The translations under genes were made by a program, and so were the position numbers. Positions 2,434-37,074 of a stretch of 64,000 nt of DNA are shown in pieces (position 1 is the stretch's first letter; each line of letters opens with the position of its first letter). Source of the stretch: Halanaerobium saccharolyticum subsp. saccharolyticum DSM 6643 (GTDB lineage: Bacteria; Bacillota; Halanaerobiia; Halanaerobiales; Halanaerobiaceae); assembly GCF_000350165.1 (NCBI RefSeq), contig NZ_CAUI01000005.1:1-64000 (forward strand), read 5' to 3'. The notes under the pieces are model-generated. The model did no database searches. It had not been told where the DNA came from and worked only from the letters and a program-made list of their open reading frames with translations.

Positions 2434-3270
2434 ATGGCGATTAAAAGTTTTAAACCGACCACACCTTCAAGGCGTTATATGACTGTTGCTAGTTTTGATG
2501 AAATTACTACAGATACGCCTGAAAAAAGCCTTTTGGCTCCAATTAAAAGAAAGGGTGGCCGTAACGCAAATGGTAGAATTACCAGCCGTCATCAGGGTGG
2601 TGGACATAAGCGCCGCTATCGTATAATAGATTTTAAGCGGGATAAAGATGGAATTCCTGCTAAAGTAAAGACTATAGAATATGATCCGAATCGTTCTGCA
2701 AGAATCGCTCTGCTGCAGTATGCAGATGGAGAAAAAAGATATATTCTTGCACCGAATAAAGTAGAAGTTGGTGACACTTTAGATACTGGTTTAGAGGCGG
2801 ATATTACTGCCGGTAATGCACTTCGGTTAAAAGATATTCCTGTTGGTACAATTGTACACAATGTAGAAATGCAGGCAGGTAAAGGTGGACAAATTGCAAG
2901 ATCTGCTGGAACAATGGCACAAATTCTTGCTAAAGAAGGTAAATTTGTACATTTAAAAATGCCTTCTGGTGAAGTTAGATTAATTCACAATGTATGTAAA
3001 GCTACTGTTGGACAGGTTGGTAATATTGATCACGAAAATATTACTGTTGGTAAAGCTGGACGCAGTCGTTGGAAAGGTAAAAGACCTCATGTACGTGGTG
3101 TAGTTATGAATCCTCATGACCACCCACACGGTGGTGGAGAAGGTAAATCACCTGCTGGTAGACATCCTGTAACTCCGTGGGGTAAACCTACTATGGGTAA
3201 AAAGACACGCAAACCAAAGCGCTCAGATAAGTATATTATCCGTTCACGTCACGATAAGAAGCGCAAATAG
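2434..3270 (+). CDS. rplB: 50S ribosomal protein L2
   Basis: L2 is essential for subunit association and peptidyl transfer. The 278-residue protein carries [16 protein letters not shown] in the N-terminal part and the conserved C-terminal [19 protein letters not shown], which includes the histidine associated with peptidyl-transferase activity. Length is standard. The start follows GGAGGG, 28 bases after rplW. Confidence 0.98.
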
Positions 3271-3288
3271 TAGAAAGGAGGATTATTG

Positions 3289-3573
3289 ATGGCTAGATCT
3301 ATAAAAAAGGGACCTTTCGTCTCAAAGAAACTAATTGCCAAAATCAGAGAAATGAATGAGAGTGGAAAAAAACAGGTTATTAAAACCTGGTCAAGAAGCT
3401 CAACCATTTTCCCTGAAATGGTTGGACATACAATTGCTGTTCATGATGGTCGTAAGCATGTACCAGTATATATATCTGAAGAAATGGTAGGGCATAAACT
3501 TGGAGAATTTGCTCCAACCAGAATCTTTAGAGGTCACAGCCGCCATACAGAACGTTCAACAGCACTTAAATAA
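3289..3573 (+). CDS. rpsS: 30S ribosomal protein S19
   Basis: S19 forms a complex with S13 in the 30S head. The protein begins [12 protein letters not shown] and ends with [10 protein letters not shown], both typical, in 94 residues. TTG directly precedes the ATG; the ATG at 3289 is preferred from the family N-terminus and its distance from AAAGGAGG. Confidence 0.97.
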
Positions 3574-31343: not shown

Positions 31344-33593
31344 ATGGTTACTTTAGTTATTACAGAAATAGATAAAAGTATTGGCCCAGGTGATATAGTA
31401 GGTGCTTTTATAAATGAAGCTGGGACAGGAAGCGACGATATTGGTAAAATTAATATAGATAAAAAAAGAAAGAAAGCGGAAGTAGAAGTTGATTGGGAAT
31501 CTGCTGCTAAGATTATAGAAGTAATGGATAACAATCAGATTGGCGGAGTACAAGTTCATGTAGAAGCCAAAAACCCAGATGATTTAATTGATAAGGATAT
31601 TATTAATTATTATAATAAATTTAAGGGGCTTGTTGAATTAGAAAGAAAGGAAGAAATTGACAGGCATAAATTAGAAATTAAATATTTATCACCAAGAGAA
31701 AGACAGGCTAAAGGGAGAAGCTTATTGAATTTACATGGTAAAGATAATGGTAATACATTTGGCCATCGACCTTTAGTTAAATTTACTTCAAAATATAAAG
31801 GGGAAAAATTAGCCGAAACTCAGATTACTCCTGGGGATTTAGTTATGATCAGTTTAAACAAACCTTTACATCCTGATAATCCTACGGGCACAGTAATAGA
31901 AAAAACTTCTTATTCAATTACAGTTGCATTTGAAAGTTATCCACCTGAATTTATATATAATAAGGGTGTCAGACTTGATTTATTTGTTAATGACACTAGT
32001 TTTCAGAGGATGTTTTCTGCTTTAGAAAAAATTAAGCACCCTGAAAATGAAATGCAGAAAAGAAAAAGAGATATTTTACTTGGTAGAAAAAAGGCTGAAA
32101 TCAAAGATAGTTTAGATTTAGAACTAGAATATTTAAATGAATCTCAAATTAAAGCAGTAGAAAATGCATTAGCTGCTGAGGATATTTATTTAATTCAAGG
32201 CCCGCCGGGAACTGGCAAAACAGTAACAGCAGTAGAATTAATCAGTAAGGCTGTAGAACGTGGGGATAAGGTACTGGCAGCAGCAGATTCGAATACGGCA
32301 GTTGATAATCTATTAGAACTGCTGGCTGAAAAAGGTCTTAATGTAATTAGAATTGGTCATCCAATAAGAGTTAATAAAAAATTACGTGAGCATACTTTAG
32401 ATGAAATTGTATTAGAACATCAGGATTATCTTGAAGCAGAGAAATTAAGAGATGAAGTTTCAGATTTAATTAATAAACAAGAATCATATATTTATCCTGG
32501 GGGTAAATACAGGAGAGGTCTTTCAGATCAAGAAATAAAAAATTATGCAGAAAAAGATTTGGAACATCATGTTAGAGGGATTAGCCCCGAAGTTATCGAA
32601 GAAATGGCAGAGTGGCTGGAACTTCAAGAAAAAATAGATAAATATTTTAAAGAAATTGAGAGGCTGGAGAATAAAGCAGTAAGAGAATTGCTGGATGAAG
32701 CTGATATTATTTGTACAACTAATATTACAGCAGGATCTGAACTTTTGGAAAATATAAAATTTGATTTAAGTGTAATTGATGAAGCTACTCAGGCAACTCA
32801 ACCTGCAGCTTTAATTCCCTATTTAAAAGCTAATAAAACTATATTAATTGGTGATCACAAACAGCTACCTCCAACAGTAGTTAATCAAGAGGCAGCTAAA
32901 AATGGATTGAGTATTTCATTATTTGAAAAATTAATTGAAATTTATCCGGGAGAAATGAGTTCTTTGCTTGAAATTCAATATAGAATGAACCGGGAAATTA
33001 TGGGCTTTTCTAGTATATATTTTTATAATAATAGTTTAAAGGCAGCTGAATCTGCAGCTGAGCAGAAGTTAAGCGATCTTGGTCTTAAAATAGATGAAGA
33101 AGATTGTTTTACAGCAAAGTCTTTGAAGTCAGAATATCCACTTGTTTTTTTAGATACTAAAGAAATGAGAGCTAATGAAAGATCTTTTGAAGGCTCTAAT
33201 TCTTATGATAATCCAGTAGAATCAGAAATTGTCCTGGATATACTTGATCGAGCAATAAAATCGTCATTAAATGAAGATGACATTGCTGTAATTGCTGCTT
33301 ATAAAGATCAAGTAGATTTAATTAATCAGCATAATAAATTTAAAGATGTTGAAATAGATACTGTTGATGCTTTTCAAGGAAGAGAAAAAGAGATGATTAT
33401 TTTTTCTGCTGTCAGAAGCAATGATGAATGTAATATAGGATTTTTAAGAGATCTTCGCCGTTTGAATGTGGCTTTGAGTAGAGCCAAAAGAAAGATGATT
33501 TTTATTGGTGATAGCAGTACAATTTCCAAAAATGATGCTTATGATAAACTTTTAAAATATATTAAAAAAAGCGGTCTTTACTATAGTCTTTAG
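31344..33593 (+). CDS. Superfamily 1 (UPF1/IGHMBP2-like) helicase with N-terminal DbpA-like RNA-binding domain
   Basis: The 749-residue protein has the Walker A GPPGTGKT near residue 285, motif II DEAT near residue 478 and the C-terminal DAFQGREK and RLNVALSRAKR, hallmarks of the UPF1/IGHMBP2 subgroup. Before them (about 140-230) lies an OB-like region. The first 75 residues contain GPGDIVGAFINEAG and DIGKINI, resembling the RNA-binding domain of DbpA/CsdA DEAD-box helicases. A role in RNA or DNA-RNA remodelling is inferred. I cannot give a gene name. Confidence 0.8.
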   Translation: MVTLVITEIDKSIGPGDIVGAFINEAGTGSDDIGKINIDKKRKKAEVEVDWESAAKIIEVMDNNQIGGVQVHVEAKNPDDLIDKDIINYYNKFKGLVELERKEEIDRHKLEIKYLSPRERQAKGRSLLNLHGKDNGNTFGHRPLVKFTSKYKGEKLAETQITPGDLVMISLNKPLHPDNPTGTVIEKTSYSITVAFESYPPEFIYNKGVRLDLFVNDTSFQRMFSALEKIKHPENEMQKRKRDILLGRKKAEIKDSLDLELEYLNESQIKAVENALAAEDIYLIQGPPGTGKTVTAVELISKAVERGDKVLAAADSNTAVDNLLELLAEKGLNVIRIGHPIRVNKKLREHTLDEIVLEHQDYLEAEKLRDEVSDLINKQESYIYPGGKYRRGLSDQEIKNYAEKDLEHHVRGISPEVIEEMAEWLELQEKIDKYFKEIERLENKAVRELLDEADIICTTNITAGSELLENIKFDLSVIDEATQATQPAALIPYLKANKTILIGDHKQLPPTVVNQEAAKNGLSISLFEKLIEIYPGEMSSLLEIQYRMNREIMGFSSIYFYNNSLKAAESAAEQKLSDLGLKIDEEDCFTAKSLKSEYPLVFLDTKEMRANERSFEGSNSYDNPVESEIVLDILDRAIKSSLNEDDIAVIAAYKDQVDLINQHNKFKDVEIDTVDAFQGREKEMIIFSAVRSNDECNIGFLRDLRRLNVALSRAKRKMIFIGDSSTISKNDAYDKLLKYIKKSGLYYSL

Positions 33594-33708: not shown

Positions 33709-33737
33709 TTGACACTTCATTGTATTTGAGATATAAT
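33709..33737 (+). promoter_or_regulatory. Consensus promoter of the 48-residue ORF
   Basis: TTGACA at 33709-33714 and TATAAT at 33732-33737, spacer 17: both hexamers match the consensus fully. Predicted start near 33744. Upstream, 33594-33708 is AT-rich and shows no other element. Confidence 0.88.
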
Positions 33738-33788
33738 TAGATTGTCTGAAATTGTTTCAAAATCATTTTAGAATGAGGTGTTCATAAA

Positions 33789-33935
33789 GTGGAGAGACTG
33801 CGCCGAAAGAAAACTTTTAGTAAAACTGAAAAAGAAGAAATTGCCAGAAGAATGGTCAGAGGCTATGAAAAAATGTCTGCAATAAATGATGATCTTATTC
33901 AAAATCTTTCTCTACTTAAGGATGGGGCTAATTAG
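33789..33935 (+). CDS. Small protein resembling the toxin-binding tail of a MazE-type antitoxin
   Basis: A GTG start eight bases after GAGGTG opens 48 residues. A basic start (MERLRRKKTFSK) is followed by EEIARRMVRGYEKMSAIND. The pattern GYxKMxxxNxxL matches the C-terminal segment of the RHH antitoxin encoded directly downstream ([13 protein letters not shown]) and of Bacillus EndoAI (GYMEMAKIN), the part that wraps around MazF. No DNA-binding ribbon-helix-helix domain is present. It could be a stand-alone MazF-binding peptide, a regulator or a gene remnant; the consensus promoter, good SD and dedicated terminator argue against a remnant. Confidence 0.6.
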   Translation: MERLRRKKTFSKTEKEEIARRMVRGYEKMSAINDDLIQNLSLLKDGAN

Positions 33936-33950
33936 TCTCATCTTTTTTCT
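33921..33950 (+). terminator. Terminator overlapping the stop codon of the 48-residue ORF
   Basis: GATGGGGCT (33921-33929) and AGTCTCATC (33934-33942) pair with two G-U pairs around AATT and are followed by six T residues. The stop codon lies in the loop and 3' arm. Confidence 0.8.
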
Positions 33951-33978
33951 TCTTTTTAAAGAATAACAATAATTACAA

Positions 33979-34006
33979 TTGAATATTTTAAAGTAAATGG
34001 TATAAT
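33979..34006 (+). promoter_or_regulatory. Promoter of the mazE-mazF operon
   Basis: TATAAT at 34001-34006 has an extended TGG; TTGAAT at 33979-33984 is a fair -35 with a 16-base spacer. It lies after the terminator of the upstream small ORF, so the two are separate units. Confidence 0.7.
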
Positions 34007-34039: not shown

Positions 34040-34336
34040 TTGACAGAAAAAAAGAAAGTAAGCATTGAAATTTCAGAATGTTTATTGGAAGAAATGGAGC
34101 GATATTGTAAAAATAATAATCAAAAGCAAAATGATTTTTTGAATCAGGCAATAAAATTTTATTTAAAAGAAATGAAAAAAGAAGAAGTTCGTAATCATCT
34201 ACGTGATGGATATAAAAAAATGGCCGGTCTTAATCAGCAGTTAGCTGATGAAGGATTATCAAGTGAATGTTATTCTTATTTATGTTATGAGCAAAGACTG
34301 GTGGAGTGTGAAAAAATTGAAAGTAAAAAGGGGTGA
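34040..34336 (+). CDS. mazE: Ribbon-helix-helix antitoxin (MazE/EndoAI type)
   Basis: The 98-residue protein has an N-terminal RHH DNA-binding domain ([18 protein letters not shown] and the helix [13 protein letters not shown], to about residue 48) and a C-terminal toxin-binding stretch with [16 protein letters not shown] 34040 follows GGAGGTGG. The C-terminal 20 residues (after SSE) are longer than in EndoAI and Cys-rich. It likely represses its own operon and neutralises MazF. It overlaps mazF by 20 bases. Confidence 0.85.
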
Positions 34337-34667
34337 TGTTTTTTACGCAAATTTAAACCCAGTCGTAGGTTCTGAACAGGGTGGGGTTAGACCAGTACTT
34401 GTTATTCAAAACGATATTGGTAATAAATACAGTCCTACCGTTATTGTTGCAGCGATTACTTCTAGAATTAACAAAGCTAAGTTGCCCACTCATGTTGAAA
34501 TACCTGCTGGTTATACTAATTTAGATAAAGATTCAGTTGTTCTATTAGAACAAATTAGAACACTTGATAAAAAAAGATTGCAGCGTCATATAGCACATTT
34601 GGGTGAAGATGTAATAGAAGATGTTAATCAGTCAATAGAAATCAGTTTAGGTTTAATAGATTTATAG
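34317..34667 (+). CDS. mazF: MazF/EndoA-type mRNA interferase toxin
   Basis: MazF cleaves single-stranded mRNA at short sites. [26 protein letters not shown]-type start (quoted in pieces: [24 protein letters not shown]) and VIVAAITSR with [10 protein letters not shown] show the active-site Arg and Thr. TTG 34317 gives 116 residues, exactly the EndoA length, with GTGGAG ten bases upstream. The GTG at 34308 is too close to that SD. It overlaps mazE by 20 bases, ensuring coupled synthesis. Confidence 0.95.
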
Positions 34668-34703: not shown

Positions 34704-34732
34704 TTGACAGTGTGAAAATAATATCATATACT
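34704..34732 (+). promoter_or_regulatory. Promoter of the hydrogenase cluster
   Basis: TTGACA at 34704-34709 and TATACT at 34727-34732 with a 17-base spacer; predicted start near 34739, with a leader of about 113 bases before the first gene. Confidence 0.85.
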
Positions 34733-34851: not shown

Positions 34852-35259
34852 ATGAAACTTAAAACTGTGAAAACTCTTCTAAAAACAGAAACTATTTTTG
34901 AAGACTGTGGAATAATGGATGATCATGAGATTAAAAATGCCTGTGGAGAAGATCTTGAGATTAAAAATGCTTGTGGCGCAGATTTAATGAGTGATGTATT
35001 AGCATTTTCAAATCAAAAAACACTACTTCTTACTGGTTTAACAAACCCCCAAGTTGTTCGCACAGCTGAGATGGTTGAAATTAAAGTGATTGTATTTGTT
35101 AGAGGGAAAAAGCCTCAAGTTGAGACAATATCTTTAGCAAATCAATTAAATATTTGTCTTTATTCTACAGAAAAATCTTTATTTGAATCGTGTGGTCTTT
35201 TATATCAAAATGGAATTGGACCAGAAGCGATGAATTATATAGAAGAAACCTCCAAATAA
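34852..35259 (+). CDS. DRTGG-domain protein, first gene of the hydrogenase cluster
   Basis: A 135-residue protein resembling the DRTGG domain found in HPr-kinase-related and CBS-domain proteins; the segment CGADLMSDVLAFS and GLTNPQVVRTAE are typical of homologues that accompany [FeFe] hydrogenases. Biochemical function is unknown; a ligand-binding regulatory role is inferred from context. A ten-residue in-frame tandem duplication, EIKNACGEDL/EIKNACGADL, lies at residues 26-45. The ATG follows GGAGG. Confidence 0.75.
   Translation: MKLKTVKTLLKTETIFEDCGIMDDHEIKNACGEDLEIKNACGADLMSDVLAFSNQKTLLLTGLTNPQVVRTAEMVEIKVIVFVRGKKPQVETISLANQLNICLYSTEKSLFESCGLLYQNGIGPEAMNYIEETSK
34927..34986 (+). repeat. 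In-frame 30-bp tandem duplication inside the DRTGG gene
   Basis: Two adjacent 30-base units (34927-34956 and 34957-34986) begin GAGATTAAAAATGC and differ at about five positions. They encode EIKNACGEDL and EIKNACGADL. The second copy joins the conserved LMSDVLAF segment, so the first is probably the extra one. Confidence 0.9.
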
Positions 35260-35276
35260 TTTTTCAGGAGTTGATT

Positions 35277-35711
35277 TTGCCTTTGCAAAAACAGCAAATA
35301 TTAAATAAAGGAATTGAGAGTTTTGATTTTCAAAGTGGGGGAGAGGCCTCCAGCAATTTAAAAAATGTTTTACGCAAATTAGGAGTTTCAGCAAAGATTG
35401 TTCGTAAAACAGCAATTATTACCTATGAATTAGAAATGAATGTTGTAATTCACTCTCTTGGAGGGGAAATCACGGCTTTTATTTCTGAAGATGAACTTGA
35501 AATAAGAGTTGATGATGAAGGACCTGGTATAGAAGACCTTGATAAAGCTTTTACAGCAGGATTTTCTACTGCTAGTGATGAAATTCGAGAAATGGGATTT
35601 GGAGCTGGAATGGGTTTAGTCAATGTTAAAAGATATGCAGACCAGATTGATGTAAAATCTTCTTCAGAAAATGGAACACATGTTAAAGTAATTATAAAAT
35701 TAGCAAGTTAA
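35277..35711 (+). CDS. GHKL ATPase of the anti-sigma factor (RsbW/SpoIIAB) type
   Basis: The 144 residues form a single HATPase domain: N-box YELEMNVVIHS, G1 DDEGPGI and G2 GFGAGMGL. Such proteins are serine kinases or nucleotide sensors; there is no phosphoacceptor His or receiver domain. TTG 35277 is six bases after AGGAG and avoids an upstream extension that overlaps the previous gene in another frame. Members of this family accompany sensory hydrogenases in clostridia. No sigma factor or STAS antagonist gene lies beside it. Confidence 0.78.
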   Translation: MPLQKQQILNKGIESFDFQSGGEASSNLKNVLRKLGVSAKIVRKTAIITYELEMNVVIHSLGGEITAFISEDELEIRVDDEGPGIEDLDKAFTAGFSTASDEIREMGFGAGMGLVNVKRYADQIDVKSSSENGTHVKVIIKLAS

Positions 35712-35739
35712 TACTGATAAATTTTGTAGGAGGTTAATA

Positions 35740-37074
35740 ATGACCAAAAAGCATTCTGTGCTGTTAAAAGAAGAAAAGTGTGAAGGATGTACAAATTGTG
35801 TTAAAGGTTGTCCTACAAAAGCAATAAGAGTACATCAGGGAAAAGCCTGGATTAAAGAAGATTTATGCATAGATTGTGCAGAATGTATAAGGGCTTGTGA
35901 GTATCATGCTAAGTATACTAAAACAGATGAACTGAAGGAAATTGTCAAATCTAACTATCCTATTTTATTAATACCTCCAAGTTTCTACAGCCAATTTAAT
36001 GAAAATATATCTGCACAAAAAATTAAAAAGGCGATTTTAAACTTGGGTTTTGAAGCTGTATTTGATGTAGCAGATGCAGCAGCTGCTTTATCACGTAAAA
36101 CACTTGATTTTTTAAATGAAAATTCTGGTAGTTATATCTCTACTTCCTGTCCAGTAATTGTAAGGTTAATTAAACTGCAATTCCCCGATTTAATTGAAAT
36201 GTTAATACCACTAAAATCTCCAGTAGAATTAATAGCTGAAAGACTTGAAAGAAAATTTAAAGAAGAAAAAGATATAGAAGCTGACATCTTCTTTTTAACT
36301 CCATGTCCAGCTAAATTAACCACCGTAGAAAGAGCTATCGGTCAGGAAAAAAGTTTTTTAACTGGAGCAATCGGGGTTGAAAATATATACAAAAAAATTT
36401 ATAATTCGCTATCCGATATTGAAATTGATGAAGACGAAAATGAATTAATAACATTAGCTACAGTTTGGGGAAGTGAAGGTGGAGAACAAAACATTTTAAA
36501 ATCCTGGCAAGATATAAACACTTTAAGTGTTTCAGGGATTAGAGAAGTTAAAAAATTATTAAATGAAATTGAAAGAAATAATATTGCAGAATCAGTTAAA
36601 TATTTTGAACTCACTTCTTGTGTTGAAGGCTGTATTGGTGGAGTATTAAATGTGATTAATCCTTTTCAGGCAAGATTTAATTTAGAACAGCGTCTAAAAA
36701 AGATTAAAGAAGTTTCTCAAAGTGAAAAATTAGATATAAATAAAACTGATGATGATTTTTATAATTTCGCTCTCCCAGATGAAATTATTGCTGATAATCT
36801 TTCCAAACTTGATGATGATTTCAAAAAAGCAATGGAAAAATTAGAACAGCTGCAGAAAGAAATTGGAATTTTACCTGGTTTGGATTGTGCAGCTTGTGGG
36901 GCGCCGGACTGTAAAACATTTGCAGAAGATATAGTTAATGGACGTGCCAATAGATCTGATTGTATTTTTATGTTAAGGCAGCAGTTAGGTAAAATGGCAG
37001 ATGATCTTTCAAACTTGGCAAATGAACTTCCGCCTGTAATGGGATCTAAAAAGGAGGAATCAGATGACAGTTAA
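35740..37074 (+). CDS. hydS: HydS-like [FeFe]-hydrogenase-domain iron-sulfur protein (putative sensory)
   Basis: The 444 residues carry two N-terminal [4Fe-4S] motifs (CEGCTNCVKGC and CIDCAECIRAC), a hydrogenase large-subunit C-terminal region, and a final four-Cys Fe-S domain (CAACGAPDC...C, about residue 383). The H-cluster loops are STSCPV near residue 136, TPCPAK near 187 and SCVEGCIGG near 292. All four cluster-binding Cys are kept, but the Cys that relays protons in catalytic enzymes (TSCCP) is Ser. This matches sensory group proteins, so a H2- or redox-sensing role is inferred. The small-subunit-like SSU domain is absent. Confidence 0.75.
   Translation: MTKKHSVLLKEEKCEGCTNCVKGCPTKAIRVHQGKAWIKEDLCIDCAECIRACEYHAKYTKTDELKEIVKSNYPILLIPPSFYSQFNENISAQKIKKAILNLGFEAVFDVADAAAALSRKTLDFLNENSGSYISTSCPVIVRLIKLQFPDLIEMLIPLKSPVELIAERLERKFKEEKDIEADIFFLTPCPAKLTTVERAIGQEKSFLTGAIGVENIYKKIYNSLSDIEIDEDENELITLATVWGSEGGEQNILKSWQDINTLSVSGIREVKKLLNEIERNNIAESVKYFELTSCVEGCIGGVLNVINPFQARFNLEQRLKKIKEVSQSEKLDINKTDDDFYNFALPDEIIADNLSKLDDDFKKAMEKLEQLQKEIGILPGLDCAACGAPDCKTFAEDIVNGRANRSDCIFMLRQQLGKMADDLSNLANELPPVMGSKKEESDDS

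What the first reader, a model, noticed from the sequence alone, without database searches (positions are those of the whole stretch)
33789..33935. Stand-alone antitoxin-tail protein next to mazEF
The 48-residue ORF lacks a DNA-binding domain but repeats the MazF-binding segment pattern (GYxKMxxxNxxL) of the MazE encoded about 100 bases downstream. It has its own full-consensus promoter, SD and terminator. It could be an independent MazF-neutralising or modulating peptide, creating a three-component toxin system. A decayed antitoxin or a chance similarity is the alternative.
Basis: partly seen in the sequence, partly recalled or inferred. Interest (0 to 1): 0.7.

Follow-up and report, generated by a model that had tools for sequence, protein, structure and literature searches.

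The report
Second, DNA-binding-free antitoxin beside mazEF
Across most of a class of mainly salt-loving anaerobic bacteria, a 50-residue protein that copies only the toxin-gripping tail of the antitoxin MazE is encoded just upstream of the mazEF toxin-antitoxin pair, usually from its own promoter, so these bacteria probably carry two different antitoxins for one toxin.

Summary
The 48-aa ORF (33789-33935 +) has a 12/12 sigma-70 promoter, SD and terminator, and shares GYxKMxxxNxxL with the MazE encoded 104 bp downstream.

It is not chance or decay. A homologous ORF of about 50 codons was found in 45 of 59 genomes of the window's class, on the same strand upstream of mazEF. In the genus it is under purifying selection (dN/dS 0.23). 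A profile built only from the small proteins finds MazE tails in the same genomes (E down to 1e-13; hhalign 97.5%, E 6e-12).

Its best PDB match is phage phi3T AimX, a 51-aa MazE-tail mimic shown to bind MazF, displace MazE and block toxicity. One genome (G014) has an intact-looking MazF with the small gene directly upstream and no detectable ribbon-helix-helix MazE.

Best explanation: a stand-alone, DNA-binding-free second antitoxin, usually transcribed apart from mazEF, so that MazF neutralisation is uncoupled from MazE repression. Binding was not shown: the structure model was uninformative and the tools cannot model complexes. No description of this three-gene arrangement turned up in the papers searched. 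It is a new variant of a known kind.

The parts
33709..33737 (+). sigma-70 promoter of the small gene: TTGACA (33709-33714), 17-bp spacer, TATAAT (33732-33737)
   Evidence: 12/12 consensus; TTGACA/TTGACT-17/18-TATAAT or TATACT (10-12 of 12) in 38 of 43 class loci tested; conserved in the genus alignment
33775..33780 (+). Shine-Dalgarno GAGGTG, 8 nt before the GTG start
   Evidence: sequence; GAGGTG/GAGGTGA conserved upstream of most homologues
33789..33935 (+). small gene: 48-aa stand-alone MazE-tail-like (AimX-like) protein; core IARRMVRGYEKMSAIN
   Evidence: conserved in 45/59 class genomes, dN/dS 0.23, family profile matches MazE tails and AimX; two relatives match the NCBIfam Staphylococcus MazE model
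33918..33955 (+). intrinsic terminator of the small gene; stem spans the stop codon (33933-33935), T-rich tail 33946-33955
   Evidence: same hairpin position in f1, f2, f5, f7 and genus g15; 99.3% of stem cells paired in 17 sequences
33979..34006 (+). separate mazEF promoter: TTGAAT-16-TATAAT, TG before the -10
   Evidence: 10/12; TTGACA-18-TATAAT in many loci of other families
34040..34336 (+). mazE: ribbon-helix-helix antitoxin with C-terminal MazF-binding tail (ORF also open from GTG 34025)
   Evidence: phmmer to B. subtilis EndoAI (4me7_E), E 5.7e-7 over residues 10-89
34308..34667 (+). mazF: PemK/MazF endoribonuclease toxin (start inferred by homology)
   Evidence: PF02452 E 8.7e-38; B. 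subtilis EndoA (4me7_A) E 1.6e-45; the only MazF found in the genome

Best explanation
The small gene encodes a second antitoxin for MazF that consists only of the toxin-binding tail. Inferred mechanism: its helix IARRMVRGYEKM inserts into the groove of the MazF dimer that the MazE C-terminal helix uses, so it neutralises MazF and competes with MazE. It has no DNA-binding domain, and in most lineages it is made from its own strong promoter and terminator with no detectable operator shared with mazEF. It would therefore give a MazF-neutralising supply that does not depend on MazE autorepression and does not lead to DNA binding, uncoupling toxin neutralisation from mazEF transcription control. 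Shown here: conservation, homology to the MazE tail, synteny, separate transcription signals, and one genome that keeps MazF with only the small protein. Inferred: binding, neutralisation, competition with MazE and the regulatory role.
For: (1) Class-wide synteny: 45/59 genomes have the small ORF upstream of mazF, 44 of them with mazE in between, or with mazEF cut off by a contig end in one. (2) Homology to the MazE tail: the small-only profile hits MazE tails in the same genomes, E 1e-13 to 1e-7 in most of the order, and MazE-like tails in about 150 genomes across the phylum; hhalign 97.5%, E 5.6e-12. (3) Residues that AimX uses are present: AimX M14, Y18, M21 correspond to window M22, Y26, M29. 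AimX M14D loses MazF binding; [quoted passage not shown] AimX is the top PDB match, E 7e-4. (4) Natural test: G014 has one MazF and no RHH MazE detectable by two searches; the small gene is next upstream, 132 bp away. That MazF is in frame and keeps the conserved QGGVRP and AAITS segments. (5) Blind scan: the motif [ML][IVR][EK]GY[KR]KMA scanned over 84,980 species gave 10 confirmed loci: 7 Halanaerobiales small proteins and 3 archaeal MazE-like proteins with a different (AbrB-like) N-terminus, each archaeal one directly upstream of mazF. (6) Tail-only proteins are the lone apparent antitoxin next to mazF in two other lineages (f19, f34), and NCBIfam's 54-position Staphylococcus MazE model hits two small proteins at 2.6e-8 and 6.5e-6. 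(7) Purifying selection, dN/dS 0.23. (8) Own promoter and terminator, no shared operator detected.
Against: No binding or toxicity data; the AlphaFold read-through model failed (pLDDT 38). In the window's genus and in family f4 the second half of the motif (LELAEEG) has drifted, so binding may be weaker. The AimX acidic residue E20 is a lysine here (K28). dN/dS of the small gene is higher than that of the MazE tail (0.07) or MazF (0.03). Families f6, f10 and genus g10 lack it, so it is dispensable. Small-MazE covariation between families was not significant (485 of 5040 permutations as high). G014 is a single draft genome, 95% complete.
Confidence: 0.72

Rival explanations
1. The small protein binds MazF (or the MazE-MazF complex) but is mainly a modulator: it competes with MazE for the groove, changes the complex that represses mazEF, or even promotes MazF release, rather than acting as a protective antitoxin.
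For: The MazE-like half-motif in the window's genus is partial; MazE is still present in nearly all genomes with the small gene, so neutralisation alone would be redundant.
Against: G014 has MazF with the small protein only; AimX, the closest studied analogue, inhibits MazF outright (PMC10769878).
Confidence: 0.12
2. The ORF is a leader peptide: the ribosome at its stop codon, which lies inside the terminator, decides whether transcription reads through into mazEF (translation-coupled attenuation).
For: The terminator stem spans the stop codon in families f1, f2, f5, f7 and genus g15; in two genus members (L011, L012) no mazEF promoter was found and the T tract is interrupted.
Against: mazEF has its own consensus promoter in most loci of the order; in f8, f9 and f11 the hairpin lies after the stop; in most of f4 there is no terminator; the protein core is conserved and MazE-like, which attenuation does not require.
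Confidence: 0.1
3. The small protein is a decoy of the MazE tail for something other than MazF, for example a phage MazE-binding factor like phi3T_93 or a protease adaptor, and so protects MazE.
For: phi3T_93 binds both AimX and MazE through the same helix (PMC10769878).
Against: No phi3T_93-like partner was looked for or found; G014 has no MazE to protect.
Confidence: 0.04
4. Decayed antitoxin fragment or chance similarity.
For: Single-sequence similarity is weak (E 0.33 in one genome).
Against: Conserved in 45/59 class genomes with start, SD, promoter and stop kept, dN/dS 0.23, profile E 1.7e-9.
Confidence: 0.02

Closest known systems
AimX of Bacillus phage phi3T (PDB 8anv_C; PMC10769878)
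   Same: 51-aa stand-alone soluble protein carrying only the MazE-tail helix (EEMAKGYEEMAAIN); top PDB match of the family profile; M14, Y18, M21 conserved here
   Different: AimX is phage-encoded, part of the arbitrium operon and controlled by AimR antitermination; here the gene is chromosomal, fixed next to mazEF with its own promoter; AimX E20 is K here
Staphylococcus MazE (NCBIfam NF041459, 54 positions)
   Same: short tail-only MazE model; it hits two of three small proteins tested at 2.6e-8 and 6.5e-6
   Different: it is the only antitoxin of its operon; here the tail-only protein coexists with a full RHH MazE; scores are far below the model's cut-off of 108 bits, and the window's own protein gave no hit
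Bacillus subtilis MazE/EndoAI (4me7_E) with MazF/EndoA
   Same: same toxin family and same tail segment (MRRGYMEMAKIN); the downstream mazE and mazF of the window are relatives
   Different: EndoAI has the RHH domain; the small protein has none
SpoIISABC of Bacillus cereus (PMC4526809)
   Same: one toxin with two antitoxins; the second (SpoIISC) also binds and neutralises the toxin
   Different: unrelated membrane toxin and antitoxins
Three-component type II systems (omega-epsilon-zeta, PaaR-PaaA-ParE; PMC5086665)
   Same: a DNA-binding-free antitoxin plus a separate DNA-binding protein
   Different: there the third protein is described as a transcriptional repressor; here the DNA-binding protein is itself a full MazE antitoxin

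Membership tests
MazE (RHH-type, Bacillus EndoAI family) | N-terminal ribbon-helix-helix DNA-binding domain | tested here: not met
   48-54 aa proteins align only to MazE residues 47-82; no DNA-binding domain match reproducible across the family in Pfam
MazE (RHH-type, Bacillus EndoAI family) | C-terminal MazF-binding segment | tested here: met
   hhalign 97.5%, E 5.6e-12; profile hits to MazE tails
MazE (any type) | adjacent to and upstream of mazF | tested here: met
   class-wide synteny; directly upstream in G014
MazE (any type) | binds and neutralises MazF | not testable with these tools
   complex modelling not possible; read-through model uninformative
Staphylococcus-type tail-only MazE (NF041459) | score above the curated cut-off | tested here: not met
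   26 and 34 bits for two relatives against 108; the window's own protein: no hit
AimX (arbitrium) | MazE-tail helix with M14, Y18, M21 | tested here: met
   window M22, Y26, M29; profile hit 8anv_C E 7e-4; residue roles from PMC10769878
AimX (arbitrium) | acidic residue at AimX position 20 | tested here: not met
   K28 in the window; K in nearly all rows of the family alignment
AimX (arbitrium) | phage location with aimR-aimP | tested here: inconclusive
   a representative of the family has no tblastn match in 50,697 phage records and the synteny is chromosomal; aimR/aimP near the window were not specifically searched for
Three-component type II TA system | third gene conserved with the TA pair | tested here: met
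   45/59 class genomes carry the small gene; all but G014 and one contig-edge case are seen as triads with mazE and mazF
Three-component type II TA system | third gene product acts on the pair | not testable with these tools
   needs bench test

The most novel reading that the evidence does not exclude
An ancestral, class-wide two-antitoxin mazEF in which one antitoxin (MazE) neutralises and represses while a second, DNA-binding-free one (AimX-like) only neutralises and is regulated separately. In at least one lineage the second has replaced MazE altogether. It would be a bacterial counterpart, possibly a model for the origin, of the phage MazE mimics AimX and YosL.
Probability: 0.45. Interest if true: 0.75.

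Novelty: new variant of a known kind. Interest (0 to 1): 0.66.

Why it matters
Textbook type II systems link neutralisation and repression in one antitoxin. Here the two functions appear to be split between two proteins, usually in two transcription units, and kept that way across a class, which makes the role of antitoxin autoregulation testable in nature. It also provides a chromosomal analogue of the phage AimX/YosL MazE mimics, and shows how tail-only antitoxins (as in Staphylococcus) could arise by passing through a two-antitoxin stage: G014 looks like the end of that path. Such 50-aa genes are easily missed by annotation.

Tried and rejected
AlphaFold2 of a natural read-through small-linker-MazF polypeptide (the two genes happen to share a reading frame in the window): pLDDT 38, pTM 0.31, uninformative, probably because of the long random linker and only 14 alignment rows; the second job was not spent because the tool returns no interface data. 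Pfam on the small proteins: no consistent family. Family-by-family covariation of small tails with MazE tails: suggestive at positions +2, +5 and +9 from the GY glycine but not significant overall. Shared operator between the two promoters: none detected (own pairs 10.05 of 14 matches, shuffled 9.6). Twin arrangement outside the class: not found in the phylum sample. Phage homologues of a family representative: none. Rfam: one sub-threshold L20 leader match (E 0.07, 21.6 against 58.7 bits), taken as chance.

Full report
**What is there.** The ORF at 33789-33935 (+) encodes 48 residues, VERLRRKKTFSKTEKEEIARRMVRGYEKMSAINDDLIQNLSLLKDGAN. It lies between a SMUBP-2-like helicase gene (31344-33593) and mazE-mazF. 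Upstream are a perfect TTGACA-17-TATAAT (33709-33737) and GAGGTG 8 nt before the GTG. A hairpin at 33918-33945 followed by a T-rich tail contains the stop codon. mazE starts at about 34040, 104 bp after the stop, behind its own TTGAAT-16-TATAAT (33979-34006). mazF follows with an overlap. MazF matches PF02452 (E 8.7e-38) and B. subtilis EndoA; MazE matches EndoAI over its RHH domain and tail. It is the only MazF found in the genome.

**Is it a gene?** A homologue was found in every sampled member of the genus (12 genomes) and in most of the order. With the family profile, 58 of 59 genomes of the class give a match: to the small ORF, to the MazE tail, or to both. After reading the loci, the small ORF is present in 45 of 59. 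The tally: family f1 14 (12 of them the genus), f2 1, f4 6, f5 1, f7 8, f8 5, f9 2, f11 8. It is absent at the 11 mazEF loci inspected in f6, f10 and genus g10 of f4, and undetermined in f3 (contig edge); G026 and G027 gave no usable locus. Record titles of matching loci name Halanaerobiales, Halanaerobiaceae and Halothermothrix, so the window comes from that order. In 11 distinct genus members there is no indel or early stop within 48 codons, and dN/dS is 0.23 (range of 40 bootstraps 0.16-0.40), against 0.24 for the MazE RHH part, 0.07 for the MazE tail and 0.03 for MazF.

**Is the MazE resemblance real?** By single sequences it is marginal (E 0.33 in one genome; 9/22 identities). A profile made only of small proteins finds the MazE tail in the same genomes, in most of the order at 1e-13 to 1e-7, and MazE-like tails in about 150 genomes across the phylum. 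Profile-profile comparison gives 97.5%, E 5.6e-12, small columns 12-47 on MazE 47-82. A pattern taken from the small proteins, scanned over one genome for each of 84,980 species, returned 10 confirmed loci. Seven are Halanaerobiales small proteins. Three are archaeal proteins with an AbrB-like N-terminus (my reading of VGERGQITIPK) and this tail, each directly before mazF. The same tail thus appears behind an RHH domain, behind another DNA-binding domain, and alone, and the loci where it could be checked lie beside mazF.

**What does it do?** The best PDB match of the family is AimX of phage phi3T (8anv_C, E 7e-4). [quoted passage not shown] it displaces MazE from MazF and blocks MazF toxicity in vivo. 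The helix contacts are M14, Y18, E20 and M21, and M14D abolishes binding. The window protein has M22, Y26, K28, M29 at these places. G-Y is invariant in the aligned family, and the M29 position stays hydrophobic.

**A natural test.** G014 (family f2) has one MazF and no detectable RHH MazE anywhere. The small gene, with its own TTGACA-17-TATACT and SD, lies 132 bp upstream of mazF on the same contig. The MazF is in frame throughout and keeps the conserved QGGVRP and AAITS segments (their catalytic role is from general knowledge of MazF). If that toxin is active, the small protein is the obvious antitoxin. Independently, tail-only proteins are the lone apparent antitoxin beside mazF in two other lineages, f19 and f34. 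NCBIfam's 54-position Staphylococcus MazE model also hits two relatives of the window protein, and S. aureus mazEF is reported not to be autoregulated by MazE (PMC4885055).

**How is it wired?** A promoter of 10-12 consensus positions precedes the small gene in 38 of 43 loci. A terminator follows it in f1, f2, f5, f7 and genus g15 (stem across the stop codon) and in f8, f9 and f11 (stem after the stop). The stem is 99% paired in 17 sequences, with two both-side changes; covariation beyond shuffles is not significant (55 of 500 as high), since half the pairs never vary. The conserved C-terminal D-E-T residues are encoded by this stem, so their conservation may be for RNA rather than protein. 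mazEF has a separate promoter in most loci of the order, often TTGACA-18-TATAAT, and no operator shared with the small promoter was detected. In most of f4 and in two genus members the spacing collapses to 5-62 bp and no second promoter is seen, which suggests an operon. So the module is normally two transcription units, occasionally one.

**Mechanism proposed.** MazE neutralises MazF and, through its RHH domain, presumably represses mazEF (general knowledge of type II systems). The small protein would bind the same MazF groove but could not touch DNA. A separately supplied second antitoxin would buffer MazF when MazE is degraded or mazEF is repressed, and would compete with MazE, changing how much MazE-MazF is available for repression. 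Binding, neutralisation and competition are inferred.

**Limits.** No complex could be modelled; the read-through model was useless. In the window's genus and f4 the C-terminal half of the motif has drifted. MazE-small covariation across families was not significant. Searches of the held papers for two-antitoxin or tripartite mazEF showed no description of this arrangement in the titles and abstracts listed; most subscription journals and all bioRxiv preprints are not held.

Noticed in passing
L067:2-247, L068:4821-5132, L069:4860-5132: Diapherotrites and related archaea carry a MazE with an AbrB-like N-terminus and the same EGYKKMAK tail directly upstream of a MazF, i.e. the same toxin-binding tail on a different DNA-binding domain.
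   Followed up: partly
L108 (G014), small gene and mazF around 2780-3430 (- strand): One draft genome of the order has mazF preceded only by the tail-only small gene and no RHH MazE found anywhere in the assembly: a natural replacement.
   Followed up: yes
L103, L104 (f19), L105 (f34): Tail-only MazE-like ORFs of about 50-75 codons are the lone apparent antitoxin next to mazF in two lineages outside the class, suggesting repeated loss of the DNA-binding domain.
   Followed up: partly
33918-33945 and the same place in loci L002-L026: The terminator stem lies in the last codons of the small ORF and spans its stop codon; the C-terminal D-E-T / D-G-A residues are encoded by the stem, so RNA and protein constraints overlap.
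   Followed up: yes
L011, L012 (two genus members): The gap to mazE shrinks to 25-32 bp, no mazE promoter is found and the T tract of the terminator is interrupted, suggesting a switch from two transcription units to an operon.
   Followed up: partly
L064:5001-5975: Small gene, mazE and mazF all lie in one reading frame, separated only by stop codons; a stop read-through would give a single small-MazE-MazF polypeptide. Probably chance.
   Followed up: no
34852-37074: Downstream of mazEF lie an unnamed 135-aa protein, a HATPase_c protein and an Fe-hydrogenase-like/ferredoxin protein; a TTGACA-17-TATACT promoter-like site sits at 34704-34732.
   Followed up: no
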